DNA from: Amycolatopsis sp. 2-15
GTDB lineage: Bacteria; Actinomycetota; Actinomycetes; Mycobacteriales; Pseudonocardiaceae
Length of the DNA: 64,000 bases
Direction of reading: 5' to 3'
Assembly (NCBI RefSeq): GCF_030285625.1
Contig: NZ_CP127294.1
Coordinates: 6,852,001 to 6,916,000, forward strand
The notes beneath the pieces are model-generated. The model searched no databases. It was not told where the DNA came from and saw nothing but the letters and a program-made list of their open reading frames with translations. Position numbers and translations under genes: made by a program. Numbering within the stretch: position 1 is the first letter of the stretch; each line of letters starts with the position of its first letter. Shown in pieces: positions 14,257-29,126 of this stretch.

Positions 14257-14257
14257 C

Positions 14258-15301: not shown

Positions 15302-15306
15302 CGCAC

Positions 15307-16716
15307 TCAGCCGCCGACGAGACCGGCGGCACGCCACTTGGCGAAGACGGCGTTGATCTGTCCCTCCGCCTCGGCGACTGATTGTTGCGGGGTGGCTTCG
15401 CCGCGTACCGCCCTGGCGAACATGTTGGGGATGACGAAGGTGCTGAACACCTCTCCGATGGCCGTGCTGGCCGGCCCCGGATGGCCGATGTTGGCGCTCC
15501 ACGGGATGGCGTCGGCGAGCAGCTTCAGTTTGTCCGGCGGCCGGGAGCCGAACGGGTCGTTCGCGAGCCAGTTCGGCAGCTCGGGGGTCAGCTTGGACCA
15601 AGCCGAGAAGTCGTACAGCTTCGACTGGTAGGTCGCCGAGGCGAAATTGGCGGTGTAGTGCAGCAGGAACTCCTTCGCCGCCGGCACCCCGGTGGCGTGC
15701 TGCGGGATGATCCAGTTGTACAGAACGTGCTGCGCGGCCAGCGCGGTCTCCGGGCCGCGCAACGCCGGGACGAAGAACGTGTCATCGGCGACGGTCGGGT
15801 TCGACCCGGCGGCGGTCCGCCAGGCGGAGATCGAGTTGACGATGTAGGACATCTTGCCGGCGACGAGGCCCTGGTTGTTGCTCGCGGCGTTCCAGGAGAA
15901 CACCTCGGGCGTCATCGCCTGCTGGTAGAGCTTCGTCATGTACTCCACGGCAGCGATCGTTTCCGGCGAGTTGATCGTGACGCGCTCGTTCGCATCCTGC
16001 TCGGACGCCCCGAAGGACCACATCAAGGCTCGCAGCACCATGTTGGAGTCGATCTCCTGAGACATGCCGAGGCCGAGCGGGACACCCTTGCTGTTCTTGA
16101 TCTGCGCCGCGCCCGTGAGGAGCTCGTCCCACGTGGTGGGGCCGTTCGGCATGCCGACGGCCTCCCACAGCGACCTGCGGTAGTTGCCCGGGTCGGGTAC
16201 CCAGCCCGGTGAGTACGCGTAGAACTTGCCGGTGGCGGGGTTGAGGCTGGACTTCTCGCACAGCGGGAGCTGCCGTCCCCAGCGCCCGGTCGCTTCGCTG
16301 ACCAGATCCCGCTGGTCGAGCACGCTCGGCTCGAACTGCGACAGCGTCGCGATGTACTGAATGAGGTCGTGGCCCTGGCGAGCCTGGATCTCGGCCGCGA
16401 TCCGGGTGGGAATCTGCGCCTGGTCGATGTGGTCGACGGTCACGTTGACACCGACCCGGGAACCCCAGTCCCGCGCGAACCGGTCGAACCACACGTCATG
16501 GTTCGGCACGAAGTGGCTCCAGAGAAGGATTTTCAGGTCACCGGACAGCTTTGTGGACGGTTCGCTGAAGGTCTCCTGCGGGGCCTGGACACCGGTGGTT
16601 TCCCCGGTGTCCTCCTCGGAGGCGCAGGCGCCCAGCGCCACCGAGCCCAAGGTGATGGCGGCGGCCGCGCGCAGCACGTCCCGCCTGCTGTGTTGTGAAG
16701 TGAGGAAGTCGCTCAT
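15307..16716 (-). CDS. Extracellular solute-binding protein, Tat-type lipoprotein
   Basis: This 469-residue protein begins at an ATG with GGAGGA seven bases upstream. The N-terminus has a twin-arginine motif (SRRDVLRAA) and a lipobox LGAC near residues 30-33, so it should be exported by Tat and lipid-anchored. The mature part is a family 1 (MalE-like) sugar-binding protein with SAWRTAAGSNP and FVPALRGPE-type segments. It is the first gene of the CUT1 importer operon. About 250 bases of noncoding DNA separate it from the FadR-type regulator upstream; I see no clear promoter in that gap. Ligand unknown. Confidence 0.9.
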   Translation of the reverse strand: MSDFLTSQHSRRDVLRAAAAITLGSVALGACASEEDTGETTGVQAPQETFSEPSTKLSGDLKILLWSHFVPNHDVWFDRFARDWGSRVGVNVTVDHIDQAQIPTRIAAEIQARQGHDLIQYIATLSQFEPSVLDQRDLVSEATGRWGRQLPLCEKSSLNPATGKFYAYSPGWVPDPGNYRRSLWEAVGMPNGPTTWDELLTGAAQIKNSKGVPLGLGMSQEIDSNMVLRALMWSFGASEQDANERVTINSPETIAAVEYMTKLYQQAMTPEVFSWNAASNNQGLVAGKMSYIVNSISAWRTAAGSNPTVADDTFFVPALRGPETALAAQHVLYNWIIPQHATGVPAAKEFLLHYTANFASATYQSKLYDFSAWSKLTPELPNWLANDPFGSRPPDKLKLLADAIPWSANIGHPGPASTAIGEVFSTFVIPNMFARAVRGEATPQQSVAEAEGQINAVFAKWRAAGLVGG

Positions 16717-16962
16717 CACCGACTCCTCCCTCTCGGGAAAATGTGGCAAATCAGTGTAGTCGATGTCGGGCACAGTGGCAGCTCGAGCACAGCGGCAGTT
16801 TGAATGGAACCATGGAGCCACCTACGGCGGCGATCACGCGCAAGACAGCGCAACGTCGTCGGACGTTGCTTCAAACCACCTCGAACCGTTCCACGACCCG
16901 GCCACCCACTGCACCCAACGCGCCGCCTGCTACCAGGCCCCCATCGCCGCGGCAGCGCAGCG

Positions 16963-17691
16963 TCAGGGGTTGAGCACCCGGTCGGTGTAGAAGCGTGTGA
17001 TGTGCTCGGCCACGAGCTCGGCCGCGCGGTCACCGTCTCCCGCCTCGATGGCACGCAGGATCGCCTCGTGCTCGGCCACCAGGTCGGCCGCGACCGCCCG
17101 CCAGTCGGGCAGGCGCGCGAACGCCGCCGCCATCTCCGACTCGACGGCGCCCCGCAGCGCCTGCATGAGGTCGGTGGCCAGCGCGTTGCCCGAGATCCGG
17201 GCGATGCTCACGTGGAACTCGGTGTCCAGCGCGTTGAACTGCTGGTACTCCTGGTCCGCCGCGCGCATGCCCTCGACCAGCTCGGCGAGCCTCGCCACGT
17301 CCTCGGGTGTGCGGGTCGCCGCCGCGCCCCGGGCGGCGTTGCGTTCGAGCTGCACGCGCGTCTCGACCAGATCGGCCAGGCTGATCCGCGCGAGCGCGAG
17401 GTGCAGCCGCAGCAGGTTGGTCAGCGCCGGGGTCGACCGGGCCGTGACGACCGAACCCGCGTCGGCGCCCGAACCCGTGCGGGCTTCGATGATCCCCATG
17501 GCTTCGAGCGCGCGCAGGGCTTCGCGGACGCTGGTCCGGCTCACTCCCAGCGCGCTCACGAGCTCGCGTTCGCTGGGGAGCTTCTCCCCCGCGCGCAGGC
17601 TGCCGTCGAGGATCTTCTCCTCGATCTGCGCCAGGACCTGTTCGTGCATCCGCACGCGGCGCACCGGCTCCCAGGCCGCCTCGGTCGTCAT
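16963..17691 (-). CDS. FadR/GntR-family transcriptional regulator with FCD domain
   Basis: This 242-residue regulator has an N-terminal winged helix (LPSERELVSALGVSRTSVREALRALEAMGII, about residues 36-66) and a C-terminal all-helical FCD ligand domain with FHVSIAR and AEHEAI metal-site histidines. The ATG at 17691 is chosen because the DNA-binding domain begins soon after it. A TGGTATGACCA site lies about 245 bases upstream. The gene lies downstream of the lactate-permease operon and upstream of the sugar ABC operon on the same strand. FadR-type LldR proteins control lactate permeases through TnGTnnnACnA sites, so regulation of the permease operon is plausible but not shown. Confidence 0.85.
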   Translation of the reverse strand: MTTEAAWEPVRRVRMHEQVLAQIEEKILDGSLRAGEKLPSERELVSALGVSRTSVREALRALEAMGIIEARTGSGADAGSVVTARSTPALTNLLRLHLALARISLADLVETRVQLERNAARGAAATRTPEDVARLAELVEGMRAADQEYQQFNALDTEFHVSIARISGNALATDLMQALRGAVESEMAAAFARLPDWRAVAADLVAEHEAILRAIEAGDGDRAAELVAEHITRFYTDRVLNP

Positions 17692-17934
17692 GACCGGTTC
17701 CCCGGCGTCATTCGCCGCGTCGTTTCCGGCATCACTGTGGTCACGCTCCTCCTCGGGTTCGTGCGACCCGCTCAAGGATGGACGCGGCGAGAGGGTCTGC
17801 CTGCGAACCCCGCCGGGCGGGGTCCGATCACAGTGGCGCGACCGGCCCGGAATCTCACCGGAGTTCCTCTGCACCGCGTAGTGCTCACTCAAGGTAATCG
17901 GAGCTCGCAGCCAGTGTCAATATGACCTCTTTGT

Positions 17935-17945
17935 TGGTATGACCA
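17935..17945. promoter_or_regulatory. TGGTATGACCA, candidate FadR-family operator
   Basis: The sequence matches the TGGT-N3-ACCA pattern recognised by many FadR-type GntR proteins. It lies just beyond the stop of the 137-residue protein and upstream of a FadR-type regulator gene. Two related sites occur at 24658 and 25824. Confidence 0.45.
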
Positions 17946-17947
17946 CA

Positions 17948-18361
17948 CTAGTCGGCACACGATCCGGCGTAGCCGAGTGACCGTTCGCGCTCCTCCGCGC
18001 GGAACGCGACCGCGAGCAGGACCGCACCCAACCGGTCGAGCACCACCACCGCGTCGGCCGGGGCTTCCCGCGCCGCCCGCCGAGACACCGCCCGCGCGAG
18101 TTTCAGCAGCCCGGCCGCGGCGCTCAGCCCGCCGAGCACCTCGAACCCTCGCGGCACCCCCACGGGACCGAGGTCCCGAGCCGCCCGCCACAGCCGGGGC
18201 AGCTCGGGCACCGGTGTCCCGGCGGCGAGGGCGTCGGCCAGTTCGAGCAGCTCGTACTGGACGTCGAGCAGCACGGCCTCGTCGCCGGCCGGCAACGTGC
18301 ACCTGGACACCGCCGCGCCGATCGCCGCGTTGGCCTCTTCGACGGCGTCGCGGGCGCTCAC
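17948..18361 (-). CDS. Hypothetical protein coupled to the lactate permease gene
   Basis: This 137-residue, soluble, mostly helical and leucine/alanine-rich protein is not recognised. Its GTG overlaps the permease stop (GTGA), so it is translated from the same message. Visible segments are DEAVLLDVQYELLELADAL, PELPRLWRAARDLGPVGVPRG and DAVVVLDRLGAVLLAVAFRAEE. There is no signal peptide, membrane segment or cysteine-rich motif. The tight linkage suggests a cytosolic accessory of the transporter or of the hydroxyacid pathway; no function can be assigned. Confidence 0.75.
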   Translation of the reverse strand: MSARDAVEEANAAIGAAVSRCTLPAGDEAVLLDVQYELLELADALAAGTPVPELPRLWRAARDLGPVGVPRGFEVLGGLSAAAGLLKLARAVSRRAAREAPADAVVVLDRLGAVLLAVAFRAEERERSLGYAGSCAD

Positions 18362-20025
18362 GGCACCATCCACGACAGCACCGGCGTCGACTGCAGGTAC
18401 ACCAGCACGCACATCAACGGCACGAACACCGCCGACGCCGCGAGCACCCGCCGGAACAGCAGGCCCTCCTTGCCCGCGAGACCCACGGCGCTGGCGCCGA
18501 TCGCGAGGTTCTGCGGGCTGATCATCTTCCCGAGTACCCCGCCGCTGCTGTTCGCGGCCGCCATCAGCACCGGTTGCAGCTGCGCACCGTGCGCGGCCGC
18601 GACCTGCAGCGCGCCGAACAGCGAGTTCGACGACGTGTCCGAGCCCGTCACCGCCGTGCCGAACCAGCCCAGCAGCGGCGAGAGCAGCGCGAACAACCCA
18701 CCCGCGCCCGCGAGGAATAACCCGAGCGTGGCCGTCTGGCCCGACATGTTCATCACGTAGGCCAGCGCCAGCACCGCCATCACCGTCAGCCCGGCGGTGC
18801 GCAGCTGCACGATCGTCTGCCCGTAGGCGCGGATCGCCTGCCCCAGCGGCACTTTCAGCAGGAACGCGGACACCACACCGGCGATGAACAGCACCGTGCC
18901 GCTGTCGGCGAGCCAGTCGAACTTGAACGACACCAGGCTCAGCGGCTTGCCCTCCGAAGTCGCGATGTGCAGGCCGGGCCAGCTGAACGTCTTCGTCGTC
19001 GTGGCCAGCGCCGCGGCCACCACCGGGATCGCGGCGATCGAGAACAGCACGATGATCGTCGCGTACGGCGCGAACGACCGGACCTGCTCGACGCGCGAGT
19101 CGACCACCGTCCGCTCCCGCACCGCGGTCGCCGCGGCCACCCCGCTGCCGCCGGAAGCCGGCGCGGGCCGCGCGCCACCGTCGTCGGGCGCGCGGTCCGG
19201 CGCCTCGGCCGGCTTCGGCCGCCAGAACCGCAGCAGCACCAGCACGGCCGCGGCGGACACGAGCGAAGCCGCGATGTCCGTGAGCTGCACCGGACCGAAG
19301 TTCGCCATCAGGTACTGGACGACCGCGAAGCTCACGCCGCACACGAGCGCGGCCGGCCACGCCTGCCGCAGCCCGCGCCGCCCGTCGAGCACGACCATGA
19401 GCACCAGCGGCACGACCAGCGCGAGGATCGGCACCTGCCGCCCGGTCATGGCAGCGAGGTCGTCGAGCGGCAGCCCGGTCACCTTGGCGAGCGTGATCAC
19501 GGGCAGCGCGACGGCACCGTACGCGACGGGCGCGGTGTTGGCGATCAGCGCGACCGTCGCCGCCTTCAGCGGTTTCAGCCCGACAGCCACCAGCATCACC
19601 GAGCAGATCGCCACCGGCGCGCCGAAACCGGCGAGCGCCTCCAGCAGGGCGCCGAACGAGAACGCGATGATCACGCCCTGCACCCGCTGGTCGTCGCTGA
19701 TCTTCGCGAAGGTGCGCCGCAGCACGTCGAAGTGCCCGGACACCTTCGTCATCTGGTAGATCCACAGGGAGTTGAGCACGATCCACAACGCGGGGAACAG
19801 GCCGAACGCCGCGCCTTCGAGCGCGGAGTCGAAGGCCGGGCCAGCGGGCATGCCGTAGACCGCGATGGCGACCACGATCGACAGCACGAGCGCGATCACC
19901 GAAGCCAGCCAGGCGCGGACGCGGAACACGCCCAGCAGCACGAACAACACCAGCAGGGGCAGGGCGGACACGAGGGCGGACCAGCCGAGGCTGCCGCCCA
20001 GTGGCGCGGGAACCTGTGTGTACAC
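18358..20025 (-). CDS. lldP: L-lactate permease (LctP/LldP) family transporter
   Basis: This 555-residue polytopic protein has 12 or more membrane segments and family signatures ALLEALAGFGAPVAIC near residues 125-140, TGSDTSSNSLFGALQ near 440-454 and SSGGVLGKMISPQNLAIG near 475-492. LctP members are proton symporters for lactate, glycolate and related 2-hydroxy acids. The GTG start has GGAGGT upstream. It begins 55 bases after the mutase large-subunit stop on the same strand, so it is probably in the mutase operon. A 2-hydroxyisobutyrate (2-methyl-lactate) substrate is inferred from that context. A central loop (about 255-290) is unusually Pro/Ala/Gly-rich. Confidence 0.9.
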   Translation of the reverse strand: MYTQVPAPLGGSLGWSALVSALPLLVLFVLLGVFRVRAWLASVIALVLSIVVAIAVYGMPAGPAFDSALEGAAFGLFPALWIVLNSLWIYQMTKVSGHFDVLRRTFAKISDDQRVQGVIIAFSFGALLEALAGFGAPVAICSVMLVAVGLKPLKAATVALIANTAPVAYGAVALPVITLAKVTGLPLDDLAAMTGRQVPILALVVPLVLMVVLDGRRGLRQAWPAALVCGVSFAVVQYLMANFGPVQLTDIAASLVSAAAVLVLLRFWRPKPAEAPDRAPDDGGARPAPASGGSGVAAATAVRERTVVDSRVEQVRSFAPYATIIVLFSIAAIPVVAAALATTTKTFSWPGLHIATSEGKPLSLVSFKFDWLADSGTVLFIAGVVSAFLLKVPLGQAIRAYGQTIVQLRTAGLTVMAVLALAYVMNMSGQTATLGLFLAGAGGLFALLSPLLGWFGTAVTGSDTSSNSLFGALQVAAAHGAQLQPVLMAAANSSGGVLGKMISPQNLAIGASAVGLAGKEGLLFRRVLAASAVFVPLMCVLVYLQSTPVLSWMVP

Positions 20026-20029
20026 AGGT
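20012..20029. promoter_or_regulatory. Inverted repeat ACCTGTGT-GT-ACACAGGT over the permease start codon
   Basis: Two perfect 8-bp arms flank a 2-bp centre and span the permease GTG (20023-20025), next to its GGAGGT ribosome site. As RNA it could sequester the start; as DNA it could bind a regulator. It may also be a chance by-product of the N-terminal codons. No known regulator is matched. Confidence 0.3.
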
Positions 20030-20080
20030 CACCTCCGGGACTCTCGTCGTTGAGAGGGGGTGGGGACTGGAGCTGGGCCC

Positions 20081-21799
20081 TCAGAACACCGGGGTTTCGG
20101 TGTAGGAGCCGAAGACATCACGCAGCGCGCCGGTGATCTCTCCCATGGACAGGTGTGCCTTCACGGCCTCGATCGTGGCGGGCATGAGGTTCGCCGCCGG
20201 GTCGGCCGCCACGGCGAGCAGGTGCTCCATCGCCGCTTTCGCCCGGTCCGGGTCCCGGTCGGCCCGCACCTGCTTGAGGCGCGAGAGTTGCCGGGCTTCG
20301 GATTCCGGGTCGAGCTTGTGGGTCTCGATCTTCTCGCCGGCACCGGCGTCGACGTACTTGTTGACCCCGATCACGGGCCGGTCGCCGCTGGCCTTGCGGC
20401 GCGCGTAGTCGTAGGCGGTGTCGGAGATCTCGCGCTGGAAGAAGCCCTGTTCGATCGCGGCGACCACGCCGCCGAGCTCTTCGATCTTCGTGAAGTAGTC
20501 GTGGATGCCCTGTTCGAGGCGATCGGTGAGGTTCTCCACGTAGTACGAACCGCCGAGCGGGTCGATCACGCTGGTGACGCCGGTTTCGTCGGCGATGATC
20601 TGCTGCGTGCGCAGCGCGACCTTCATCGCCTGCTCGCTCGGGATCGTGTAGGCCTCGTCGAGACCATTGGTGTGCAAGGACTGCGCGCCGCCGAGCACGG
20701 CCGAGAGGGCCTGCAGCGCCGTGCGGATGATGTTGTTGAGCGGCTGGGGTTTCGTGAGCGTGGCCGCTGCCGTCTGCGCGTGGAAGCGCAGCCGCATCGA
20801 CTGCGGGTTCTTGGCGCCGAAGGTCTCCTTCATCATCTTCGCGTAGAACCGCCGCACCGCGCGGAACTTCGCGACCTCCTCGAAGAGGTCCGCCTGGCTG
20901 ACGAAAAAGAACGACAGCCGTGAAGCGAACTGGTCCACGTCGACCCCGGTGGCGACGACGTCCTCCACGTAGGCCTTCGTGATGGCCATCGTGAACGCGA
21001 TCTCCTGCACCGCGTTCGCCCCGGCCTCGCTGATGTGGTAGCCGGAGATGTTCACGGGGTTGTAGCGGGCGATGTGCTCGCTGGCGTAGACCACGGTGTC
21101 GCGCACGATCCGCATGCTCGGCCGGACCGGGAACACCCACTCCTTCTGCGCCACGTACTCCTTGAGGATGTCGTTCTGGATCGTCCCCGAGAGCTTGTTG
21201 AGGTCGTAGCCACGCTGCTCGGCGACCGCGACGTACATCGCGAGCAGAATCCACGCCGAGGGGTTGATCGTCATCGACACGCTGATCTTCTCGAGGTCGA
21301 TGCCGTCGAACAGCGCCTCCATGTCGGGAAGTGTGTCGATCGCGACGCCCTCGCGGCCGACCTCGCCGAGGCTCATCGGGTCGTCGCTGTCCAGGCCCAT
21401 CAGCGTCGGCATGTCGAAGTCCACGGACAGGCCGGTCTGGCCCTGCGCGATGAGGTATTGGAACCGTTTGTTCGTCTCCTCGGCCTGCCCGAAGCCCGCG
21501 ATCTGACGCATGGTCCAGTTCCGGCCGCGGTACATCGTCGGGTACGGGCCGCGCGTGTACGGGTAGCGGCCGGGCAGGCCGATGTCGTGCCAGTCGTCCG
21601 GCAGGTCGGCCGGCGTGTAGACGCGCTGCACCTCCATGCCGCTGCCGGAGCGGTAGACGTCGCGGGATTCGGGCTGGCGGTTGACGAACGCCGCGAGCTC
21701 GTCGCCCTCCCAGCCGGCCAGCTCGCGCGTGACCGCTTCGACGAGTGCCTCGGTCGTCAGTGCTCGTTCCGCTGGGGCCGGGTCGTGCTCGTTCACCAC
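20081..21799 (-). CDS. hcmA: B12-dependent acyl-CoA mutase large subunit, 2-hydroxyisobutyryl-CoA mutase type
   Basis: This 572-residue substrate-binding subunit of the methylmalonyl-CoA mutase superfamily lacks the cobalamin domain, as in isobutyryl- and 2-hydroxyisobutyryl-CoA mutases (ICM, HCM). Key residues favour HCM: RQIAGF gives Ile100 where MCM/ICM have Tyr/Phe, and SVDFDMP gives Asp127 where ICM has Ala. These correspond to IleA90 and AspA117 of the Aquincola enzyme, with the same 27-residue spacing. KEYVAQKEW has Gln rather than the Arg of methylmalonyl-CoA mutase. The C-terminus GSYTETPVF also resembles HcmA. HCM interconverts 2-hydroxyisobutyryl-CoA and (S)-3-hydroxybutyryl-CoA. 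Start is one of two tandem GTGs (21799 or 21796) overlapping the meaB-like stop. Pivalyl- or isobutyryl-CoA mutase is the alternative. Confidence 0.85.
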   Translation of the reverse strand: MVNEHDPAPAERALTTEALVEAVTRELAGWEGDELAAFVNRQPESRDVYRSGSGMEVQRVYTPADLPDDWHDIGLPGRYPYTRGPYPTMYRGRNWTMRQIAGFGQAEETNKRFQYLIAQGQTGLSVDFDMPTLMGLDSDDPMSLGEVGREGVAIDTLPDMEALFDGIDLEKISVSMTINPSAWILLAMYVAVAEQRGYDLNKLSGTIQNDILKEYVAQKEWVFPVRPSMRIVRDTVVYASEHIARYNPVNISGYHISEAGANAVQEIAFTMAITKAYVEDVVATGVDVDQFASRLSFFFVSQADLFEEVAKFRAVRRFYAKMMKETFGAKNPQSMRLRFHAQTAAATLTKPQPLNNIIRTALQALSAVLGGAQSLHTNGLDEAYTIPSEQAMKVALRTQQIIADETGVTSVIDPLGGSYYVENLTDRLEQGIHDYFTKIEELGGVVAAIEQGFFQREISDTAYDYARRKASGDRPVIGVNKYVDAGAGEKIETHKLDPESEARQLSRLKQVRADRDPDRAKAAMEHLLAVAADPAANLMPATIEAVKAHLSMGEITGALRDVFGSYTETPVF

Positions 21800-22764
21800 A
21801 GTTCCTCCTCGTCAGTCGTCTCGGCACCGGGCCGCCCGACCAGGCGGCGCGCGGCGGAGAGCGGGTCCTCGCGCCGCGCGGTCACGTCGTCCACCGCTTC
21901 GTCGAACGCGGGGACGCCGGGCCGCAGCCCGTCGAGCACGAGCTGTTCGGCGACCCACCGGATGCGGGTCGCGCTGTTGCGCCGGGCGCGGCGCTCGCGT
22001 TCGCCGTGCTCGGTCATCCACGCCAGGTGCGCGGCGAACTCCTCGGCGAGCTCGGGCACGCCGTCGCCGGTGGCGGCGACGGTCTGCTGGATCGGCACGT
22101 TCCACTGGTGCGGCTTGCGGTGCGCCAGCCGCAGCATGTCGCGCAGCTCGGCCACGGTCTTGGCCGCGCCTTCGCGATCGGCCTTGTTCACCACGTGCAC
22201 GTCGGCGATCTCCAGTAGGCCGGCCTTGATCGCCTGCACGTCGTCGCCCATGCCCGGCACGCTCACCACGGCCACGGTCTGGGCCGCGCTGATCACGTCG
22301 ACCTCCGCCTGCCCGACGCCGACGGTCTCGAGCACCACCACGTCCTTGCCCGCGGCGTCGAGGACGGTGATCGCGTCGAGCGTCGCGCGGGAAAGACCGC
22401 CGAGCGCGCCCCGGGTGGCGACGGAGCGGATGAACACCCCCTCGTCCCCCGCGAGGCCGGTCATCCGGATGCGGTCACCGAGGATCGCGCCGCCGCTGAA
22501 CACGCTGGACGGGTCCACCGCCAGCACGCCGACCGTCTTGCCCGCTTTCCGGTAGTGCTCCGTCAGCGACTTGACCAGCGTGCTCTTGCCGCTGCCCGGC
22601 GGTCCGGTCAGACCGAGCACGTGCGCGTGCCCCGCCTTGCCGTGCAGCTCGGCGAGCGCCTCGTCGACACCGGCGGTGCGCCGCTCCACGAAGGTGAGCA
22701 TCCGCGCGATGGCCGGGTGCTCCCCTGCGAGCACCCGCCCGACGACGTCGCCCGGCGTCTTCAC
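21793..22764 (-). CDS. meaB: MeaB/ArgK-family GTPase, mutase chaperone (MeaH-like)
   Basis: This 323-residue G-protein has Walker A GPPGSGKS at 54-61, the VLAVDPSSVFSGGAILGDRIRM switch region split around 80-100, ETVGVGQAEVD near 150-160 and the base-recognition NKAD motif. MeaB proteins load and protect adenosylcobalamin in partner mutases. The GTG overlaps the CoA ligase stop and the gene overlaps the mutase start, so it is dedicated to this mutase. In known 2-hydroxyisobutyrate clusters the equivalent gene is meaH. Confidence 0.9.
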   Translation of the reverse strand: MKTPGDVVGRVLAGEHPAIARMLTFVERRTAGVDEALAELHGKAGHAHVLGLTGPPGSGKSTLVKSLTEHYRKAGKTVGVLAVDPSSVFSGGAILGDRIRMTGLAGDEGVFIRSVATRGALGGLSRATLDAITVLDAAGKDVVVLETVGVGQAEVDVISAAQTVAVVSVPGMGDDVQAIKAGLLEIADVHVVNKADREGAAKTVAELRDMLRLAHRKPHQWNVPIQQTVAATGDGVPELAEEFAAHLAWMTEHGERERRARRNSATRIRWVAEQLVLDGLRPGVPAFDEAVDDVTARREDPLSAARRLVGRPGAETTDEEELW

Positions 22765-24182
22765 GACCCACTTCCGAGGCGGCGCAGCAGGTCGCGGTCG
22801 TCGATCACCCGCCGCGCCTTGAACTCGGTGCGGTCGAACGTCTTGTACTCCACCGGGACCACGTGCGCGCCGACGCCGAGCGCGCGCCGCAGCTTGTCCT
22901 CGATCGCGCGAGCCCAGCCGTCCAGAGTGGACTCCGCGACGCCGCGGTGCTCCACCTGCACGGCGAGGGTGTCCATCGTGGACTTGCGGCTGATCACGAT
23001 GCGGTGCTCGCCGCCGTAGCCCTCGGCGGCCATCACCACGTCGTCGATCGCGCTCGGGTACACGTTCTCGCCGCGCACGGTGAACATGTCGTCGATGCGC
23101 CCGTAGATGCCCTGCGGCAGGAACGGGTACGTGCGGCCGCGGTCGGCCGAGGGCGCTTCCCAGCGTGTGAGGTCGTTGGACAGCAGCCGGATCATCGGCT
23201 GGCTGGTGCGCTCCAGCGTGGTGTACACGGGGGTGCCCTCGCGGCCGTAGTCCACGCGGTGGTGGTCGACGGGGTCGCACACCTCGGTGTAGACGAGGTC
23301 CTGCCAGGCGAACACGCCCGGCTCGTGGTTCGCGGCACCCAGGTGCATCCACGGGCTGACCTCGGCCATGCTGCCCGAGTCGTAGACCGCCGCATCGAAG
23401 GCCGCTTCGATGCGGCCGCGGATCGTCGGCACGCTCGCGCCGGGCTCGCCGGAGAAGAACAGCTTGCGCAGCCCCAGATCCGCGGGGTCCACACCTTCGT
23501 CGGCGGCGACCTCGGCCAGGTGCAGCGCGTAGGACGGCGTGCCATAGAAGACGGTCACGCCCATCTGCTTCATCCACATCACCGTCCGAGCGGTCTGGCC
23601 CGGCGTGCCGGCACCGAACGGGAACACGCGCGCGCCCAGCCGTTCCGCGCCGATGTAGGCACCCCACGAACCCCAGTAGAGGCTCAGCGGCGAGGCGACC
23701 AGCACGGTGTCGGTTTCGCGGATGCCCATCCCCCACATCACGCGGGCGTGAGCGTTGGCGACGCTGCGCCAGTCGCGCTCGCTGATGCCGAACGCCGTCG
23801 GGCGGCCGGTGGTGCCCGACGTGCCGTTCACGTGCTTGACCTCGCCCGGGTCCACGGCGAGGTAGCTGCCGAACGGCTCGTGGGCGGCCTGGTCGGCGCG
23901 CAGCTCTTCCTTGCGCACCACGGGAACCTTCTCGAAGTCCGACAGGTCGCGGATGGCCGACGGGTGGATCCCCGCCTCCTCCCACTTGCGCCGGTAGAAC
24001 GGCGCGTGGTCCCACGCGTAGGCCATCACCTCACGGATGCGGGCGAGAATCGCCTCGTCGCGTTCGCCCGCGGGCATCGTCTCCCGCCGTGGGAACCAGT
24101 GCCGCTGCCCGGACGGCGGGCGGTAGGTCTCGTCGTAGCGCGGCGGCCAGCTCCACTGCTCCATCGGGTTCTGCGCGTCCAT
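22761..24182 (-). CDS. Acyl-CoA ligase, phenylacetate-CoA ligase (PaaK) fold; probable 2-hydroxyisobutyryl-CoA synthetase
   Basis: This 473-residue adenylate-forming enzyme has the P-loop motif TSGTTG at 121-126, an FFSGEPGASVPTIR segment, YDSGSMAEVSPW and the YGRIDDMFTVRGENVYPSAI hinge motif typical of PaaK-like ligases. The ligase of the Aquincola 2-hydroxyisobutyrate cluster is of this type. It would make the CoA thioester consumed by the mutase. The ATG at 24182 shares a base with the small-subunit stop (TGATG); a GTG three bases upstream is possible. Substrate is inferred from context. Confidence 0.8.
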   Translation of the reverse strand: MDAQNPMEQWSWPPRYDETYRPPSGQRHWFPRRETMPAGERDEAILARIREVMAYAWDHAPFYRRKWEEAGIHPSAIRDLSDFEKVPVVRKEELRADQAAHEPFGSYLAVDPGEVKHVNGTSGTTGRPTAFGISERDWRSVANAHARVMWGMGIRETDTVLVASPLSLYWGSWGAYIGAERLGARVFPFGAGTPGQTARTVMWMKQMGVTVFYGTPSYALHLAEVAADEGVDPADLGLRKLFFSGEPGASVPTIRGRIEAAFDAAVYDSGSMAEVSPWMHLGAANHEPGVFAWQDLVYTEVCDPVDHHRVDYGREGTPVYTTLERTSQPMIRLLSNDLTRWEAPSADRGRTYPFLPQGIYGRIDDMFTVRGENVYPSAIDDVVMAAEGYGGEHRIVISRKSTMDTLAVQVEHRGVAESTLDGWARAIEDKLRRALGVGAHVVPVEYKTFDRTEFKARRVIDDRDLLRRLGSGS

Positions 24183-24625
24183 CACGCCTCCTCTGCGACG
24201 CCGGTCAGCGCGCGAATGCGCTCGACGATCGTCTCCGGGGTGGTGTCCTGGCCGAGCACCTCGGCCACGCCCATCTTCTTGAGCGTCTCCTCGTCCTCGT
24301 CCGGCATCACGCCGCCGGCGACGATGGCGAAGCCGGGCCGGTCGGGCATCGCGTCGATCAGCTCGAAGATGCGGGTGAAGATCGGCATGTGCGCGCCGGA
24401 GAGCAGGCTCACGCCGAGCACGTCGACGTCCTCCTGCACGGCCGCTTCCAGCACCTGCTCGGGGCTGCGGTGCAGGCCGGTGTAGATCACCTCCATGCCC
24501 GCGTCGCGCAGGGTCCGCGCGACGACCTTCACGCCACGGTCGTGGCCGTCCAGCCCGATCTTGGCCAGCATCACCCGGATCGGTTCGCCGCCGCTCTCAC
24601 CCACCGTGTCCACACCTCGTTCCAC
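24182..24625 (-). CDS. hcmB: B12-binding small subunit of the acyl-CoA mutase
   Basis: This protein of about 147 residues is a stand-alone cobalamin-binding domain. The base-off/His-on motif DxHxxG is present as DGHDRG (Asp26, His28, Gly31), followed by SLLSGAH and VAGGVMPDEDEETL, the other two loops that hold the nucleotide tail. It is the first gene of the operon. The start is taken as the GTG at 24625, with two further in-frame GTGs downstream. The divergent promoter region with a TGGTCTGACCA site lies immediately upstream. Confidence 0.88.
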   Translation of the reverse strand: MERGVDTVGESGGEPIRVMLAKIGLDGHDRGVKVVARTLRDAGMEVIYTGLHRSPEQVLEAAVQEDVDVLGVSLLSGAHMPIFTRIFELIDAMPDRPGFAIVAGGVMPDEDEETLKKMGVAEVLGQDTTPETIVERIRALTGVAEEA

Positions 24626-24657
24626 GACCTGAACTGCATCTGGTCTTGCCTTGCATG

Positions 24658-24668
24658 TGGTCTGACCA
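24658..24668. promoter_or_regulatory. TGGTCTGACCA operator in the divergent mutase/hydrolase promoter region
   Basis: This FadR-type site (TGGT-N3-ACCA) sits in the 108-bp gap between hcmB (minus) and the 3-hydroxyisobutyryl-CoA hydrolase gene (plus). The same 13 bases TGTGGTCTGACCA recur upstream of the FadR-type regulator at 25923. A shared regulator acting on both is the simplest reading. Confidence 0.6.
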
Positions 24669-24733
24669 TAGAAGTGGGCGTATGGAATGTGCAACCCTGG
24701 GATCGAGCACCACCCGGCTGCAGGAAGGCGAAG

Positions 24734-25801
24734 GTGTCCTACGTGAGCACCGTTTTGGCCCGCACACAGGGGGCGGTCGGCAGGTTGACCGTGAACCGCC
24801 CGGAGGCACTGAACGCCCTGGATCTGCGCATGATCCGGGCGATGCGGACCGCCCTCGACGAGTGGGAGTCCGACCCGGCCGTGACCGCTGTCGTGCTCGA
24901 CGGCGCGGGCGATCGGGCCTTCTGCGCGGGCGGCGACATCGGCGTGGTCCACTCGTCGGCCGTCGGCGATCCCGCGGTCGCCCTGACGCTGTGGCGCGAG
25001 GAGTACCGGCTCGATGCCCGCCTCGCGCGCTACCCGAAACCCGTCGTCGCGCTCATGGACGGCATCACGATGGGCGGCGGGATCGGGATCGGCGCGCACG
25101 CGGCGGTCCGGGTGGTCACCGAACGCTCGGTGCTCGCGATGCCGGAGGTCGCGATCGGCCTCGCGCCCGACGTCGGCGGCACGCTCCTGCTCGCCCGCGC
25201 ACCCGGCGAGCTGGGCACGCACCTCGCGCTCACCGCCGGTCGCGCCGGTCCCGCCGACGCGGTCCACTGTGGACTCGCCGACCACCACGTGCCCGCCGGC
25301 CGGCTGGCCGCGCTCGTCGACGACCTCGCCGCCGGTGCGGCACCCGAGCCGACCGTGGCGAAATACGCCGAGGATCCCGGCCCGGCTCCGCTTGTGGCCG
25401 CGCGGTGCTGGATCGACCATGCGTACGGCGGCGCGACCACCGTCGAAGACCTGCTGTACCACCTCGAGGCGATCGACGAGCCGCGGGCGCGCGAGGCCGT
25501 CGCCGCGATCACCGCGGCCGCCCCGACGGCACTCAAGGTGACGCTGCGAGCTGTGCGCGCGGCTCGCGAGATGAGCACGATCGAGGAATGCCTGCGCCAG
25601 GACTTCCGCCTGTGCAGCCGGTTCCTCGAGCATCCCGACCTGGCCGAGGGCATCCGGGCGGCGATCCTTGAGAAGGATCGCGCACCGCGCTGGCGCCCGG
25701 GCACGCTCGCCGAGGTCGGCGACGAGGCCGTCGAGGCGTTCTTCGCGCCGCTGGCCGAGGAGCTGGACCTGCCGGGTCCCGATCACCTGGTCCATCCGTA
25801 G
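24734..25801 (+). CDS. 3-hydroxyisobutyryl-CoA hydrolase family protein (ECH_2)
   Basis: This 355-residue crotonase-fold enzyme carries FCAGGDIGVVHSS near residues 60-72 and ITMGGGIGIGAHAAVRVVTE near 111-130, followed by AMPEVAIGLAPDVGG. The PDVGG motif, the length and the C-terminal DRAPRWRPGTLAEV mark the 3-hydroxyisobutyryl-CoA hydrolase branch rather than simple enoyl-CoA hydratases. It hydrolyses a short 3-hydroxyacyl-CoA thioester. The GTG at 24734 has GGAAGG five bases upstream. It is divergent from the mutase operon and shares its control region, so it may act on a branched or hydroxylated acyl-CoA of the same pathway. Confidence 0.85.
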   Translation: MSYVSTVLARTQGAVGRLTVNRPEALNALDLRMIRAMRTALDEWESDPAVTAVVLDGAGDRAFCAGGDIGVVHSSAVGDPAVALTLWREEYRLDARLARYPKPVVALMDGITMGGGIGIGAHAAVRVVTERSVLAMPEVAIGLAPDVGGTLLLARAPGELGTHLALTAGRAGPADAVHCGLADHHVPAGRLAALVDDLAAGAAPEPTVAKYAEDPGPAPLVAARCWIDHAYGGATTVEDLLYHLEAIDEPRAREAVAAITAAAPTALKVTLRAVRAAREMSTIEECLRQDFRLCSRFLEHPDLAEGIRAAILEKDRAPRWRPGTLAEVGDEAVEAFFAPLAEELDLPGPDHLVHP

Positions 25802-25823: not shown

Positions 25824-25834
25824 TGGTCTGACCA
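25824..25834. promoter_or_regulatory. TGGTCTGACCA operator upstream of the second FadR-type regulator
   Basis: Identical to the site at 24658 and about 90 bases upstream of the ATG of the FadR-type regulator. Autoregulation is the likely meaning. Confidence 0.6.
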
Positions 25835-25922: not shown

Positions 25923-26630
25923 ATGGGCCAACCGGACAACGTGCGCTACCTCGGGTCACCCGGCCAGGCGCTGGCGGGGATCCAGGACTGGATCGTCTCC
26001 GCGCGGCTGAGCGCGGGCGACCCGCTACCCGCCGAACGTGACCTGGCCCGGGCGCTCGGCGTCGGACCCGCGCACGTGCGCGACGGGGTCCGCGCCCTGG
26101 AAGCGGCGGGGGTGCTCGAACCGGCGGCCACGGGCAGCGCGGCCGCGGTCGTGGCCGGTGAGCCGAGCGGCGCGCTGCACAAGCTGCTCCGGCTGCACCT
26201 CTCGCTGTCGCGGTTCGCCACCGGTGACCTCATGTCGATCCGGCTCGAGCTGGAACGCTCGTCGGCGGCGCGCGCGGCCCGGGGCGCCGCACCAGCGGAC
26301 ATCAAGGAGCTGAGGGAGGTCACCGACGAGATGGGCCGGCCCGGCGTGACCCGGGTGCGGTTCCGCGAGCTCGACTCCGGTTTCCACCTCGGCCTCGCCC
26401 GTGCGGCGCACAACGACCTCGCCGCCGTGCTGCTCGCCTCGCTCGGCGACGCTGTCGGCGACGAGATGACCGCCGGGTACGCTCGGACGGCCGACTGGCC
26501 CGCCACCGCGCGGCAGCTCGCGACCGAGCACACGTGGATCCTCGACGCGATCGAAACCGGCGACCCGGATCGCGCGTCGGCCGAGGTGACACGGCACATC
26601 GCCGGTTTCTACGGTCTGCGCGCCGGCTGA
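25923..26630 (+). CDS. FadR/GntR-family transcriptional regulator with FCD domain
   Basis: This 235-residue protein has a winged helix (LPAERDLARALGVGPAHVRDGVRALEAAGVL, about 38-68) and an FCD-type helical ligand domain with FHLGLARAAHND and ATEHTWILDAIETGD. It is paralogous to the regulator at 16963-17691: both have the LLRLHL-(A/S)-L-(A/S)-R stretch at the domain junction. It lies directly downstream of a TGGTCTGACCA site identical to the one in the mutase promoter region, so it is the best candidate for control of the mutase cluster. The start is the ATG at 25923 with a GGAGG-rich region upstream. Confidence 0.85.
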   Translation: MGQPDNVRYLGSPGQALAGIQDWIVSARLSAGDPLPAERDLARALGVGPAHVRDGVRALEAAGVLEPAATGSAAAVVAGEPSGALHKLLRLHLSLSRFATGDLMSIRLELERSSAARAARGAAPADIKELREVTDEMGRPGVTRVRFRELDSGFHLGLARAAHNDLAAVLLASLGDAVGDEMTAGYARTADWPATARQLATEHTWILDAIETGDPDRASAEVTRHIAGFYGLRAG

Positions 26631-26715
26631 GCGGTTCCCCGGAACCCCTTGCGGGGCATAGGGTCTCCCCCAGGTTTCACGGATGAGCAGTTCACCGTCG
26701 AGCACTGGAGGACGC

Positions 26716-27495
26716 ATGTCGTTGCTGGCCGAGCTGAGCGCGGCGATCACCGGGGGTGGCATCGAGGTCGTCGACCTCACCGCTCCCCTGACTTCGAGCA
26801 CCCCGATCCTGCAGCTGCCCGAGCCGTTCGCGAACACGATCCCGTTCCGGCTCGAGGAGATCAGCCGCTACGACGAGCGCGGCCCGCGCTGGTACTGGAA
26901 CGACATCCACACCGGCGAGCACACCGGCACCCACTTCGACGCGCCCGTCCACTGGCTGTCCGGAAAGGACGGTCTCGACGTTTCGCAGGCGCCGCTGAGC
27001 ACGCTCGTCGCGCCCGCGGTGGTGCTCGACGCGTCGGCGAAAGCCCAGGGCAACCCGGACTTCCTGCTGTCGGTGGACGACGTGCGCGAGTGGGAGTCCG
27101 AGCACGGCGCGCTGCCGGCGGGCGCGTGGCTGCTCTACCGCAGCGGCTGGGACGTGCACTCCAACGATCAGGACGAGTTCCTCAACGCCGACGCGTCCGG
27201 CTCGCACACCCCCGGGGTGTCTCCCGAGTGCGCCAAGTGGCTCGCCGAGGAGACGCCGATCGCGGGGCTGGGCGTGGAGACCGTCGGCACCGACGCCGGC
27301 CAGGCGCCCGGGCTCGACCCGGCCTTCCCGTGCCACGAGCTGCTGCTCGGCGCGGGCAAGTTCGGCCTGACGCAGCTGCGCAACCTGGCGAACCTGCCCG
27401 CGACCGGTGCGATGCTGGTGATCAGCCCGCTGCCGATCGTCGGCGGTTCGGGCAGCCCGGCCCGGGTGTTCGCGCTCGTCGAGCGTGGCGCGTGA
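26716..27495 (+). CDS. Cyclase family protein (kynurenine formamidase-like metal hydrolase)
   Basis: This 259-residue cytosolic enzyme has the cyclase-family metal motif HTGTHFDAPVHW with His69, His73, Asp75 and His79. Family members hydrolyse amides or lactone-like bonds (kynurenine formamidase, isatin hydrolase). The ATG at 26716 has GGAGG at ideal spacing. Its stop overlaps the start of the thiamine-diphosphate enzyme, so the pair is co-translated and should act in sequence on one substrate. Which substrate is unknown. Confidence 0.85.
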   Translation: MSLLAELSAAITGGGIEVVDLTAPLTSSTPILQLPEPFANTIPFRLEEISRYDERGPRWYWNDIHTGEHTGTHFDAPVHWLSGKDGLDVSQAPLSTLVAPAVVLDASAKAQGNPDFLLSVDDVREWESEHGALPAGAWLLYRSGWDVHSNDQDEFLNADASGSHTPGVSPECAKWLAEETPIAGLGVETVGTDAGQAPGLDPAFPCHELLLGAGKFGLTQLRNLANLPATGAMLVISPLPIVGGSGSPARVFALVERGA

Positions 27496-29126
27496 AGGTC
27501 GCGGAACTCGTCGGGCGCACGCTCGCCGACCTCGGCGTCGGCATGGCCTTCGGGGTGGTCGGCAGCGGCAACTTCGAGGTGACCAACGCGCTGCGGGCGG
27601 CGGGCGTGCGCTTCGTCGCCGCGCGGCACGAAGGCGGCGCGGCGAGCATGGCCGACGCGTACGCGCGGATGAGCGGCCAGGTCTCCGCGCTGAGCCTGCA
27701 CCAGGGGTGCGGGCTGACCAACGCGATCACCGGCATCACCGAAGCGGCGAAGAGCCGCACACCGATGGTCGTGGTCGCCGCCGACGCCGCCGCGGCGGCC
27801 GTGCTGTCGAACTTCAAGATCGACCAGGACGCGCTCGGCGTCGCGGTGGGCACGGTGGCCGACCGCGTGCATTCGGCGGAATCCGCCTTCGCCGACACGA
27901 TCCGCGCGTTCCGCACCGCGCGGCAGGAGAACCGGACCGTCGTGTTCAGCCTGCCGATCGACCTGCAGCAGCAGGAAGCGCCGACGCCCGGCGAAGTGCC
28001 GGAGGTGCCCGGCCCCGCGCCGATCCGGCCGGAAACCGCGGTGTCCGACGAGCTGGCGGAGCTGTTGTCCGAGGCGCGGCGCCCGGTGTTCATCGCCGGC
28101 CGCGGCGCCCGGGGCCAGGCCACCGCGCTGCGGGCGCTGGCCGACGTCACCGGCGCACTGCTCGCGACCTCGGCCGTGGCGAATGGCCTCTTCCACGACG
28201 ACCCGTGGTCACTCGGGATCAGCGGCGGTTTCTCCTCGCCGCTGACCGCGGAGCTGATCGCGGACGCGGACCTCGTCGTGGGCTGGGGCTGCGCGCTGAA
28301 CATGTGGACCACGCGCCACGGCAAGCTGCTCGGGCCGCGGGCGCGGCTCGTGCAGGTCGACCGGGAGCAGGCCGCGCTCGGCGCGCACCGGCCGATCGAC
28401 CTCGGCGTGGTCGGCGACGTCGCGGCCACCGCCGTCGACGTGCTGGAGCTGCTGGAAGCCCGCGGGCACAAGGCCGAGGGCTACCGCGGTCCCGAGCTCG
28501 CTGCGCGTCTGGCGGCCGAGGTGCGCTGGAACGACGTCGCGCACCTCGACAACTCCGGCGACGGCCGGATCGACGCGCGCACACTCAGCGCCCGCCTCGA
28601 CGAGCTGCTGCCCGCCCAGCGCGTGGTGTCGATCGACTCGGGCAACTTCATGGGTTACCCGAGCGCGTACCTGTCCGTGCCGGACGAGAACGGGTTCTGC
28701 TTCACGCAGGCCTACCAGTGCGTCGGGCTCGGGCTGGGCACGGCGATCGGCGCCGCGCTCGCGCGCCCGGACCGGCTGCCCGTGCTCGGCGTCGGCGACG
28801 GCGGGTTCCACATGGCGATCTCCGATCTGGAGACGGCCGTGCGGCTGCGGCTGCCGCTGGTGGTGGTCGTCTACAACGACGCCGCGTACGGTGCGGAGGT
28901 CCACCACTTCGGCGACGCCGACCTCGACACGGTGCGCTTCCCCGACACGGACCTCGCGGCGATCGCGCGCGGCTTCGGCTGCAGCGGCGTCACGGTGCGC
29001 ACGCCGGGGGACCTGGCCGGGGTGACGAAGTGGCTCGGCGGTCCTCGCGAGACACCGCTGGTGATCGACGCGAAGGTCTCCGACGACGGTGGTTCGTGGT
29101 GGCTCGCCGAAGCGTTCGGGCACTGA
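27492..29126 (+). CDS. Thiamine-diphosphate-dependent enzyme (acetolactate synthase superfamily)
   Basis: This 544-residue enzyme has the three-domain layout of the family: an N-terminal Pyr domain with catalytic Glu47 in RHEGGAAS, a central domain near 200-330, and a C-terminal PP domain with the GDG motif VGDGGFHMAI near residue 433 and YNDAAYG about 25 residues later. Members include decarboxylases, C-C ligases and lyases. Actinobacterial 2-hydroxyacyl-CoA lyases are ThDP enzymes that cleave 2-hydroxyisobutyryl-CoA, but I cannot place this protein there from motifs. It is fused in expression to the cyclase gene, which suggests a joint two-step pathway. Confidence 0.82.
   Translation: MKVAELVGRTLADLGVGMAFGVVGSGNFEVTNALRAAGVRFVAARHEGGAASMADAYARMSGQVSALSLHQGCGLTNAITGITEAAKSRTPMVVVAADAAAAAVLSNFKIDQDALGVAVGTVADRVHSAESAFADTIRAFRTARQENRTVVFSLPIDLQQQEAPTPGEVPEVPGPAPIRPETAVSDELAELLSEARRPVFIAGRGARGQATALRALADVTGALLATSAVANGLFHDDPWSLGISGGFSSPLTAELIADADLVVGWGCALNMWTTRHGKLLGPRARLVQVDREQAALGAHRPIDLGVVGDVAATAVDVLELLEARGHKAEGYRGPELAARLAAEVRWNDVAHLDNSGDGRIDARTLSARLDELLPAQRVVSIDSGNFMGYPSAYLSVPDENGFCFTQAYQCVGLGLGTAIGAALARPDRLPVLGVGDGGFHMAISDLETAVRLRLPLVVVVYNDAAYGAEVHHFGDADLDTVRFPDTDLAAIARGFGCSGVTVRTPGDLAGVTKWLGGPRETPLVIDAKVSDDGGSWWLAEAFGH

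What the first reader, a model, noticed from the sequence alone, without database searches (positions are those of the whole stretch)
17948..25801. Mutase operon that joins 2-hydroxyacid uptake, CoA activation and B12-dependent rearrangement
In one direction and almost without gaps the window has B12 small subunit, PaaK-like CoA ligase, MeaB-type GTPase, mutase large subunit, then 55 bases later an LctP-type 2-hydroxyacid permease and a 137-residue unknown protein. The first four match the known 2-hydroxyisobutyrate (hcmB/hcl/meaH/hcmA) set. 2-Hydroxyisobutyrate is 2-methyl-lactate, so a lactate-permease homologue in the same operon would be a fitting importer. The permease link and the small protein are, to my knowledge, not part of the described clusters.
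Basis: partly seen in the sequence, partly recalled or inferred. Interest (0 to 1): 0.75.

Follow-up and report, generated by a model that had tools for sequence, protein, structure and literature searches.

The report
Hydroxyisobutyrate mutase operon with own permease
A soil-type actinobacterium carries one gene block that very probably imports the branched acid 2-hydroxyisobutyrate, activates it and rearranges it with a vitamin-B12 enzyme; the block includes a lactate-type permease of its own branch and a shrunken relative of the enzyme that makes active B12, both also found in related bacteria.

Summary
On the minus strand, nearly gap-free: hcmB, hcl, meaH, hcmA, 55 bp, an LctP permease, then a 137-aa protein. 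HcmA, HcmB and HCL match the solved 2-hydroxyisobutyryl-CoA mutase and ligase far better than their relatives. The permease follows hcmA in 10 of the 20 closest loci; hcm-linked permeases form one clade (100/100), apart from this genome's four other LctPs. The palindrome TGGTNNNACCA occurs three times in the 64-kb window, only at this cluster's promoter regions; in the 10 lctP loci none lies between hcmA, lctP and the start of the small gene. The "unknown" protein is a truncated PduO-type cobalamin adenosyltransferase homologue without the N-terminal ATP-binding segment, with the fold predicted intact, dN below dS, and a conserved C-terminal cysteine. PduO-type adenosyltransferases follow hcmA in nine gammaproteobacterial loci, so this looks like an operon-linked B12 enzyme turned into a probable pseudoenzyme. 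The permease substrate and the small protein's role are inferred, not shown. New variant of a known catabolic operon.

The parts
24182..24604 (-). hcmB, B12-binding small subunit of 2-hydroxyisobutyryl-CoA mutase (140 aa; start codon approximate)
   Evidence: Best PDB match 4r3u_C HcmB 170 bits, next 123; PF02310
22761..24185 (-). hcl, 2-hydroxyisobutyrate-CoA ligase (474 aa)
   Evidence: 6hdw 2-hydroxyisobutyryl-CoA synthetase 638 bits, next PaaK-type 209; next homologue in the genome 34% identical
21793..22764 (-). meaH, MeaB-type G-protein chaperone of the mutase (323 aa)
   Evidence: TIGR00750 318 bits over cut-off 240.75; PF03308
20081..21799 (-). hcmA, large subunit of 2-hydroxyisobutyryl-CoA mutase (572 aa; searches used residues 6-572)
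   Evidence: 4r3u_A 794 bits against 444 for the best methylmalonyl-CoA mutase; RQIAGFG and DFDMPT motifs
18358..20025 (-). lctP, lactate-permease-family transporter (555 aa), hcm-linked clade; proposed 2-HIBA importer
   Evidence: TIGR00795 427 bits over cut-off 341; PF02652; hcm-linked clade 100/100
17948..18361 (-). atrL (name given here): truncated, probably catalytically dead relative of PduO-type cobalamin adenosyltransferase (137 aa); start overlaps the lctP stop
24658..24668 (.). operator TGGTCTGACCA in the hcmB / ech2 divergent promoter region
   Evidence: exact operator 32-64 bp upstream of the approximate hcmB start in 16 of the 20 closest loci
25824..25834 (.). operator TGGTCTGACCA upstream of gntR_b
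17935..17945 (.). operator TGGTATGACCA upstream of gntR_a
16963..17892 (-). gntR_a, GntR/FCD regulator directly after the operon (ORF; true start probably internal)
   Evidence: PF00392 and PF07729 over cut-offs; a same-strand homologue follows the operon in 13 of the 20 closest loci
24743..25801 (+). ech2, 3-hydroxyisobutyryl-CoA hydrolase-like protein, divergent from hcmB
   Evidence: NF004127 394 bits over cut-off 274; 4hdt 336 bits; divergently next to hcmB in 5 of the 20 closest loci: L004, L007, L009, L011, L013
25923..26630 (+). gntR_b, second GntR/FCD regulator (start taken as an in-frame ATG after the operator)
   Evidence: PF07729 and PF00392 over cut-offs; homologues beside hcmB in related loci

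Best explanation
It is a regulated 2-HIBA catabolic unit. Proposed route: the LctP-family permease brings in 2-hydroxyisobutyrate (2-methyl-lactate), presumably with a proton as annotated for E. coli LldP and GlcA; HCL makes 2-hydroxyisobutyryl-CoA; HcmAB with adenosylcobalamin rearranges it to 3-hydroxybutyryl-CoA, which would enter beta-oxidation encoded elsewhere (not searched); MeaH loads and protects the cofactor. AtrL, descended from an adenosyltransferase, most likely no longer adenosylates: it holds or hands over cobalamin for MeaH/HcmAB, or docks the genome's canonical adenosyltransferase to them. The flanking GntR/FCD regulators control the unit through TGGTNNNACCA operators. Shown here by sequence: gene identities, operon-like layout, conservation, one clade and similar branching for permease and mutase, operator placement, adenosyltransferase homology and absence of the ATP segment. 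Inferred: all activities, the permease substrate, the AtrL role, regulator-operator pairing.
For: Core identity; mutase motifs in related loci. Permease: lctP directly after hcmA in 10 of the 20 closest loci (L003-L022). In 200 family genomes the 5 LctPs at >=75% identity all lie next to hcmA and the next best is 64%. One clade of 13 rows among 37 (100/100), branching much like the HcmA tree. Four other LctPs in the same genome, one beside GlcD/GlcF-like genes and one beside an FMN-dependent L-lactate-dehydrogenase-like gene (all these neighbours score under their curated NCBIfam cut-offs), so lactate or glycolate uptake is probably covered. Operators: 3 of 3 exact sites in the window at cluster promoter regions; in 10 of 10 lctP loci none between hcmA and lctP or between lctP and the atrL start (L003 has no exact site at all). 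In three mycobacterial hcm loci without lctP (L015-L017, of five) a different transporter, MFS, is found with two such operators at its front. No actinobacterial 2-hydroxyacyl-CoA lyase over cut-off in the genome, best 368 against 600. AtrL.
Against: No functional data. 10 of the 20 closest loci, and the 60 more distant ones, show no lctP in the held flank (several flanks are cut short), so the permease is not obligatory. Only four positions separate the hcm-linked LctPs from the others by my criterion, weak support for a changed substrate. LctP members in the review passages I saw carry lactate and glycolate; the 2-hydroxyisobutyrate carrier named there, CitP, is of another family. Weaker homologues of the mycobacterial MFS transporter also lie near hcm in L003, L004 and L010, which have lctP, and none was found in the mycobacterial loci L018 and L021. 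AtrL scores far below the curated adenosyltransferase cut-off (24.3 against 108.45); 9 of the 20 closest loci show no AtrL-type ORF, and in L003 and L014 a very divergent one lies on the other arm. Its cysteine lies in a tail modelled at pLDDT under 50. No promoter- or terminator-like site was found.
Confidence: 0.6

Rival explanations
1. The permease carries lactate or another small 2-hydroxyacid; it is in the operon because such acids are met together with 2-HIBA or because the family is broad, not because it is a 2-HIBA specialist.
For: [quoted passage not shown] the window LctP is still 57-62% identical to the paralogues beside the L-lactate-dehydrogenase-like and GlcD-like genes; few clade-specific positions.
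Against: The genome has paralogues beside lactate- and glycolate-oxidation-like genes; none of the cluster genes scanned is a lactate enzyme; in the genomes sampled the hcm-linked permeases are one clade and those at >=75% identity occur only beside hcmA.
Confidence: 0.2
2. The mutase system works mainly on a related branched acid (for example pivalate or 2-hydroxy-2-methylbutyrate) rather than 2-HIBA.
For: Substrate scope cannot be read from sequence alone; the natural source of 2-HIBA, or of a related acid, is described as not yet identified.
Against: HcmA keeps the RQI and DFD motifs of the solved 2-HIBA mutase, unlike methylmalonyl-CoA mutase; HCL is by far closest to the solved 2-HIBA ligase.
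Confidence: 0.1
3. AtrL is a decaying gene product with no function.
For: 65 of 92 canonical conserved columns not kept; no AtrL-type ORF in 9 of the 20 closest loci; very divergent forms in L003 and L014.
Against: Open frame kept in several genera; dN below dS in 9 of 9 pairs, though most pairs are too divergent for exact ratios; invariant residues and a conserved C-terminal cysteine; confident fold.
Confidence: 0.12
4. AtrL is still an active adenosyltransferase, alone or as a mixed oligomer with the canonical enzyme that supplies the missing ATP segment.
For: Two arginines of the conserved RRAxR motif are kept in 12 of 12 rows, 10 of them distinct; each of the four family genomes with an AtrL-type match has a second match to the profile, seen at canonical-type score for three.
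Against: The N-terminal ATP segment is absent from the window protein and further canonical residues are replaced; the model begins at about residue 27-33 of bacterial adenosyltransferase chains.
Confidence: 0.15

Closest known systems
hcmB-hcl-meaH-hcmA clusters of Aquincola tertiaricarbonis L108 and Methylibium petroleiphilum PM1
   Same: PM1 has GntR, then a B12-binding protein, AMP-binding protein, meaB and mutase large subunit in the same order; the closest solved mutase and ligase are named as the 2-HIBA enzymes, which PMC7176365 describes for Aquincola.
   Different: PM1 has no LctP annotated within the 9 kb shown on either side; it has two PduO-type adenosyltransferases after hcmA, a ThDP enzyme and 3-hydroxybutyryl-CoA dehydrogenase. 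The window has lctP and a truncated adenosyltransferase homologue. The Aquincola cluster itself was not fetched.
ibc cluster 2 of Mycolicibacterium sp. ELW1 (PMC13188929, passages seen)
   Same: HCL, two-subunit mutase, auxiliary protein and FadR/GntR regulator in an actinobacterium.
   Different: Its listed transporter is an MHS-family MFS protein, not LctP ('permease' occurs 0 times); it also has cobalamin biosynthesis genes.
Lyase-HCL cluster of Actinomycetospora chiangmaiensis (PMC7176365, abstract, introduction and passages seen)
   Same: HCL-based activation of 2-HIBA in an actinobacterium, with a GntR regulator in the same table as the lyase-HCL genes.
   Different: Uses a ThDP-dependent lyase to acetone and formyl-CoA, no mutase. 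The window genome has no lyase over the family cut-off.
LctP family (LldP, GlcA, LutP; TC 2.A.14)
   Same: Family membership over curated cut-offs.
   Different: 39-42% identical to the two E. coli members; own clade tied to hcmA.
PduO-type ATP:cob(I)alamin adenosyltransferase (human MMAB, Mycobacterium tuberculosis ATR)
   Same: Homology and predicted fold.
   Different: ATP-binding N-terminus missing, most conserved residues replaced, conserved cysteine in the C-terminal tail.

Membership tests
2-hydroxyisobutyryl-CoA mutase (HcmAB) | Separate large and B12-binding small subunits, closest to the characterised HcmAB | tested here: met
   4r3u_A 794 bits against 444 for the next chain; 4r3u_C 170 bits against 123
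2-hydroxyisobutyryl-CoA mutase (HcmAB) | Active-site signature isoleucine in RQIAGFG and aspartate in DFDMP (roles and numbers Ile90 and Asp117 recalled, not read here) | tested here: met
   Both in the window; RQIAGFG in 34 of 36 rows, DFDMPT in 36 of 36; methylmalonyl-CoA mutase has rqyagf and afdlat
2-hydroxyisobutyryl-CoA mutase (HcmAB) | Activity on 2-hydroxyisobutyryl-CoA | not testable with these tools
   Needs enzyme assay
2-HIBA-CoA ligase (HCL) | Closest to the solved ligase rather than to phenylacetate-CoA ligase, and in operon with the mutase | tested here: met
   638 against 209 bits
LctP family transporter | Score over the curated family cut-off | tested here: met
   TIGR00795 427.1 against 341.15; PF02652 439 against 27
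L-lactate permease or glycolate permease equivalog | Score over the equivalog cut-offs | tested here: not met
   PRK10420 389 against 918; PRK09695 408 against 1121
2-HIBA transporter | Transport of 2-HIBA | not testable with these tools
   Inferred from context only
PduO-type cobalamin adenosyltransferase | Homology and fold | tested here: met
PduO-type cobalamin adenosyltransferase | N-terminal ATP-binding segment (GDxGxT and following) | tested here: not met
   13 of 13 canonical conserved columns between positions 3 and 32 are gaps in the window protein
PduO-type cobalamin adenosyltransferase | Curated NCBIfam cut-off | tested here: not met
   TIGR00636 24.3 against 108.45
Actinobacterial 2-hydroxyacyl-CoA lyase route | NF058623 over cut-off in this genome | tested here: not met
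   Best of 21 matches 368 against 600

The most novel reading that the evidence does not exclude
AtrL is a dedicated cobalamin escort made from a dead adenosyltransferase: having lost ATP binding, it keeps the corrin-binding bundle and uses an acquired, conserved C-terminal cysteine, possibly as a cobalt ligand, to pass or park B12 for the MeaH-HcmAB mutase, in an operon whose LctP permease is the first 2-HIBA-specific member of its family.
Probability: 0.28. Interest if true: 0.75.

Novelty: new variant of a known kind. Interest (0 to 1): 0.5.

Why it matters
2-HIBA arises from fuel-ether breakdown, and its mutase serves as an engineering scaffold (passages), yet none of the papers I could list or read was seen to name an LctP-type importer for it. 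A permease clade tied to the mutase gives a direct candidate. An adenosyltransferase homologue without the ATP segment, kept next to a B12 mutase and its G-protein, offers a natural test case for separating cofactor delivery from cofactor synthesis, two jobs that the human adenosyltransferase MMAB does together (passages).

Tried and rejected
A lactate-operon reading was set aside: none of the cluster genes scanned is a lactate enzyme. The ThDP enzyme at 27492-29126 as a 2-hydroxyacyl-CoA lyase was rejected: 158 against a cut-off of 600, and the lyase is not its best PDB match. In some searches I had given that gene in a wrong frame (no family); searches used the right one. An early operator guess was wrong in form; its count was at chance. 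The longer form GTGGTCNGACCAC with two mismatches is also at chance, 7 found against 6.4 expected; only exact TGGTNNNACCA stands out, and I chose it after seeing the sites and from recall of GntR-type operators, so its window statistic is not independent; the recurrence in other loci is the better evidence. Promoter and terminator scans gave nothing. A comparison of ech2 with HcmA was uninformative. The plasmid collection has HcmA-like genes in 47 records, best 65% identical; only the PM1 hit was opened. Search for a cobalamin-adenosyltransferase pseudoenzyme gave one paper, on microcompartments by its title. The descent of AtrL is open: one clade (100/99) on long branches. Foldseek gave no PDB match at E <= 0.001; its best rows are engineered scaffold proteins and adenosyltransferases at 0.001-0.03, so the structural claim rests and the sequence profile. 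PDB has no LctP relative by sequence. The lists are cut after the best rows or by the E-value limit, so weaker AtrL or LctP matches may be missed. In one search the lctP/atrL labels on the HcmA tree need as many changes as shuffled labels; I use only the branching order. Of 10 membrane-protein candidates near lctP-less loci, several are unrelated families and one (L026) has no Pfam match.
Full report
What is in the sequence. Six genes run on the minus strand from 24604 to 17948 almost without gaps: hcmB, hcl, meaH, hcmA, then 55 bp, lctP and a 137-aa ORF whose start overlaps the lctP stop. HcmA matches the solved 2-hydroxyisobutyryl-CoA mutase large subunit with 794 bits against 444 for the next protein, HcmB its small subunit with 170 against 123, and the ligase the solved 2-HIBA-CoA ligase with 638 against 209. 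The isoleucine and aspartate motifs of the mutase are present; DFDMPT is in 36 of 36 HcmA rows examined and RQIAGFG in 34 of 36. That these residues set the substrate is recalled; the primary paper is not held.

The genome. The window lies in a 10.05-Mb single-contig genome. Its small protein is 94% identical to one from an Amycolatopsis strain, so it is probably an Amycolatopsis. No actinobacterial 2-hydroxyacyl-CoA lyase passes its cut-off in it (best of 21 matches 368 against 600), so the mutase route is the likely one. Downstream dehydrogenase and thiolase were not searched for.

The permease belongs to the unit. A scan of genome contigs (84,980 species) with HcmA kept the best 80 of 330 confirmed loci. 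Among the 20 closest (L003-L022, HcmA identity 78-88%; 19 actinobacterial by their titles, L020 titled Acidobacteria), lctP directly follows hcmA in 10: L003-L007, L009-L011, L013 and L022. None of the other 60 loci shows lctP in the held flank, though several contigs end soon after hcmA. In 200 genomes of the same family, HcmA at >=83% identity occurs in 7 and LctP at >=75% in 5; all 5 lie next to hcmA, and the best LctP elsewhere is 64% identical. A maximum-likelihood tree of 37 LctPs puts the 13 hcm-linked ones in one clade (100/100), apart from the four other LctPs of the same genome and from E. coli LldP and GlcA; its inner order is much like that of the HcmA tree. Of the four paralogues, one sits beside GlcD/GlcF-like genes, one beside an FMN-dependent L-lactate-dehydrogenase-like gene (these neighbours score under their NCBIfam cut-offs), one among acyl-CoA genes and one near an IclR regulator. 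The hcm-linked copy is therefore probably not the cell's lactate permease. Only four positions separate the clade from the other rows by my criterion, so the sequence itself says little about substrate.

A shared operator. The palindrome TGGTNNNACCA occurs three times in the 64-kb window (0.30 expected; 0 of 100 shuffles reach three): between hcmB and ech2, before gntR_b and before gntR_a. An exact copy lies 32-64 bp upstream of the approximate hcmB start in 16 of the 20 closest loci; L003, L008, L019 and L020 lack it. In the 10 lctP loci none lies between hcmA and lctP or between lctP and the atrL start; in L005 and L007 one overlaps the very end of the atrL frame, before gntR_a, and L003 has no exact copy anywhere. 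Of five mycobacterial loci (L015-L018, L021), none with lctP, three (L015-L017) have an MFS transporter with two such operators at its front; in L015 the open frame runs across the operators and the start was not mapped. Weaker homologues of that transporter also lie near hcm in L003, L004 and L010. The ELW1 paper lists an MHS-family MFS transporter in its mutase cluster (passages seen). Different lineages may thus place different transporters in the same regulon.

Where it occurs, and whether it is just decay. Among the 20 closest loci an AtrL-type ORF follows hcmA or lctP in nine (L004-L010, L013 cut by the contig end, L022); two more, very divergent, lie on the other arm in L003 and L014; nine loci show none. 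dN is below dS in 9 of 9 pairs, with ratios of about 0.2 to 0.6; the divergent pairs are unreliable. In the MAG locus L008 a longer AtrL with a remnant of the ATP segment follows hcmA directly, and it branches first in the AtrL clade (midpoint drawing). Of the rows inspected, 18 of 18 distinct complete rows without that remnant carry a cysteine in the C-terminal tail; L008 has none at that place, and two rows (P0011, cut short, and P0012, altered tail) were set aside. As a control, 7 of 25 canonical enzymes have a cysteine somewhere in their last 30 residues. A search of 5.8 billion proteins with profile A1 returned 12 clusters at E <= 1e-5 among the 7,997 candidates scored, incomplete ones included.

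Adenosyltransferases in other hcm clusters. Among the 80 loci, nine gammaproteobacterial ones (L038, L060, L067, L068, L070, L071, L074, L076, L082) have a PduO-type adenosyltransferase whose frame starts within 165 bp of the hcmA end; the five printed are full length, and the L070 frame is shorter. Other loci, such as L072 and L075 of Marinobacter, gave no match in the held flank. Methylibium petroleiphilum PM1 has two, the one nearer hcmA being divergent. An adenosyltransferase in this position is thus not new. A truncated, probably inactive one was not named in what I saw (20 of 31 papers listed; 1 paper; 12 of 24 listed; 2 papers), by listings only.

Mechanism. Import by LctP, activation by HCL, rearrangement by HcmAB with MeaH, and B12 handling by AtrL is the reading I find most likely (0.6 overall; pathway core about 0.85; permease substrate about 0.65; AtrL as non-catalytic B12 handler about 0.5). 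In the human system the adenosyltransferase both makes and delivers the cofactor (passages seen); AtrL could be a delivery-only derivative. Everything functional is inference.

Other cluster members. The divergent ECH_2 protein (24743-25801) resembles 3-hydroxyisobutyryl-CoA hydrolases and lies divergently next to hcmB in L004, L007, L009, L011 and L013; it may release CoA from 2- or 3-hydroxyacyl-CoA, but this was not tested.

Noticed in passing
window 24743-25801 and 25923-26630 (+): 3-hydroxyisobutyryl-CoA hydrolase-like gene and a second GntR/FCD regulator, divergent from the operon, with operators in front; homologues recur beside hcm in related loci.
   Followed up: partly
window 26683-29126 (+): A PF04199 cyclase-family gene overlapping a ThDP-dependent enzyme gene (best PDB match BbmA, about 149 bits); substrate unknown, probably a separate unit.
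   Followed up: partly
window 12440-16821 (-): ABC import genes (UgpC/MalK-like ATPase, a BPD_transp_1 permease, a long ORF without NCBIfam match) next to the cluster.
   Followed up: no
L221:10961-11542 (Methylibium petroleiphilum PM1 plasmid): The adenosyltransferase nearest hcmA in PM1 is itself a long-branch, divergent PduO member, with a second canonical-looking one in the same stretch: possibly independent specialisation.
   Followed up: partly
L015, L016, L017: Mycobacterial hcm loci carry an MFS transporter with two copies of the operator at its front, and no lctP.
   Followed up: partly
L008:5661-6557: AtrL with an N-terminal remnant (RGDAYYTSL) directly after hcmA, a possible intermediate between canonical and truncated forms.
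   Followed up: partly
genome G000:C1:8431478-8433043: A further LctP paralogue lies among acyl-CoA dehydrogenase, enoyl-CoA hydratase and ATP-grasp/succinyl-CoA-ligase-like genes: another possible acid uptake unit.
   Followed up: no
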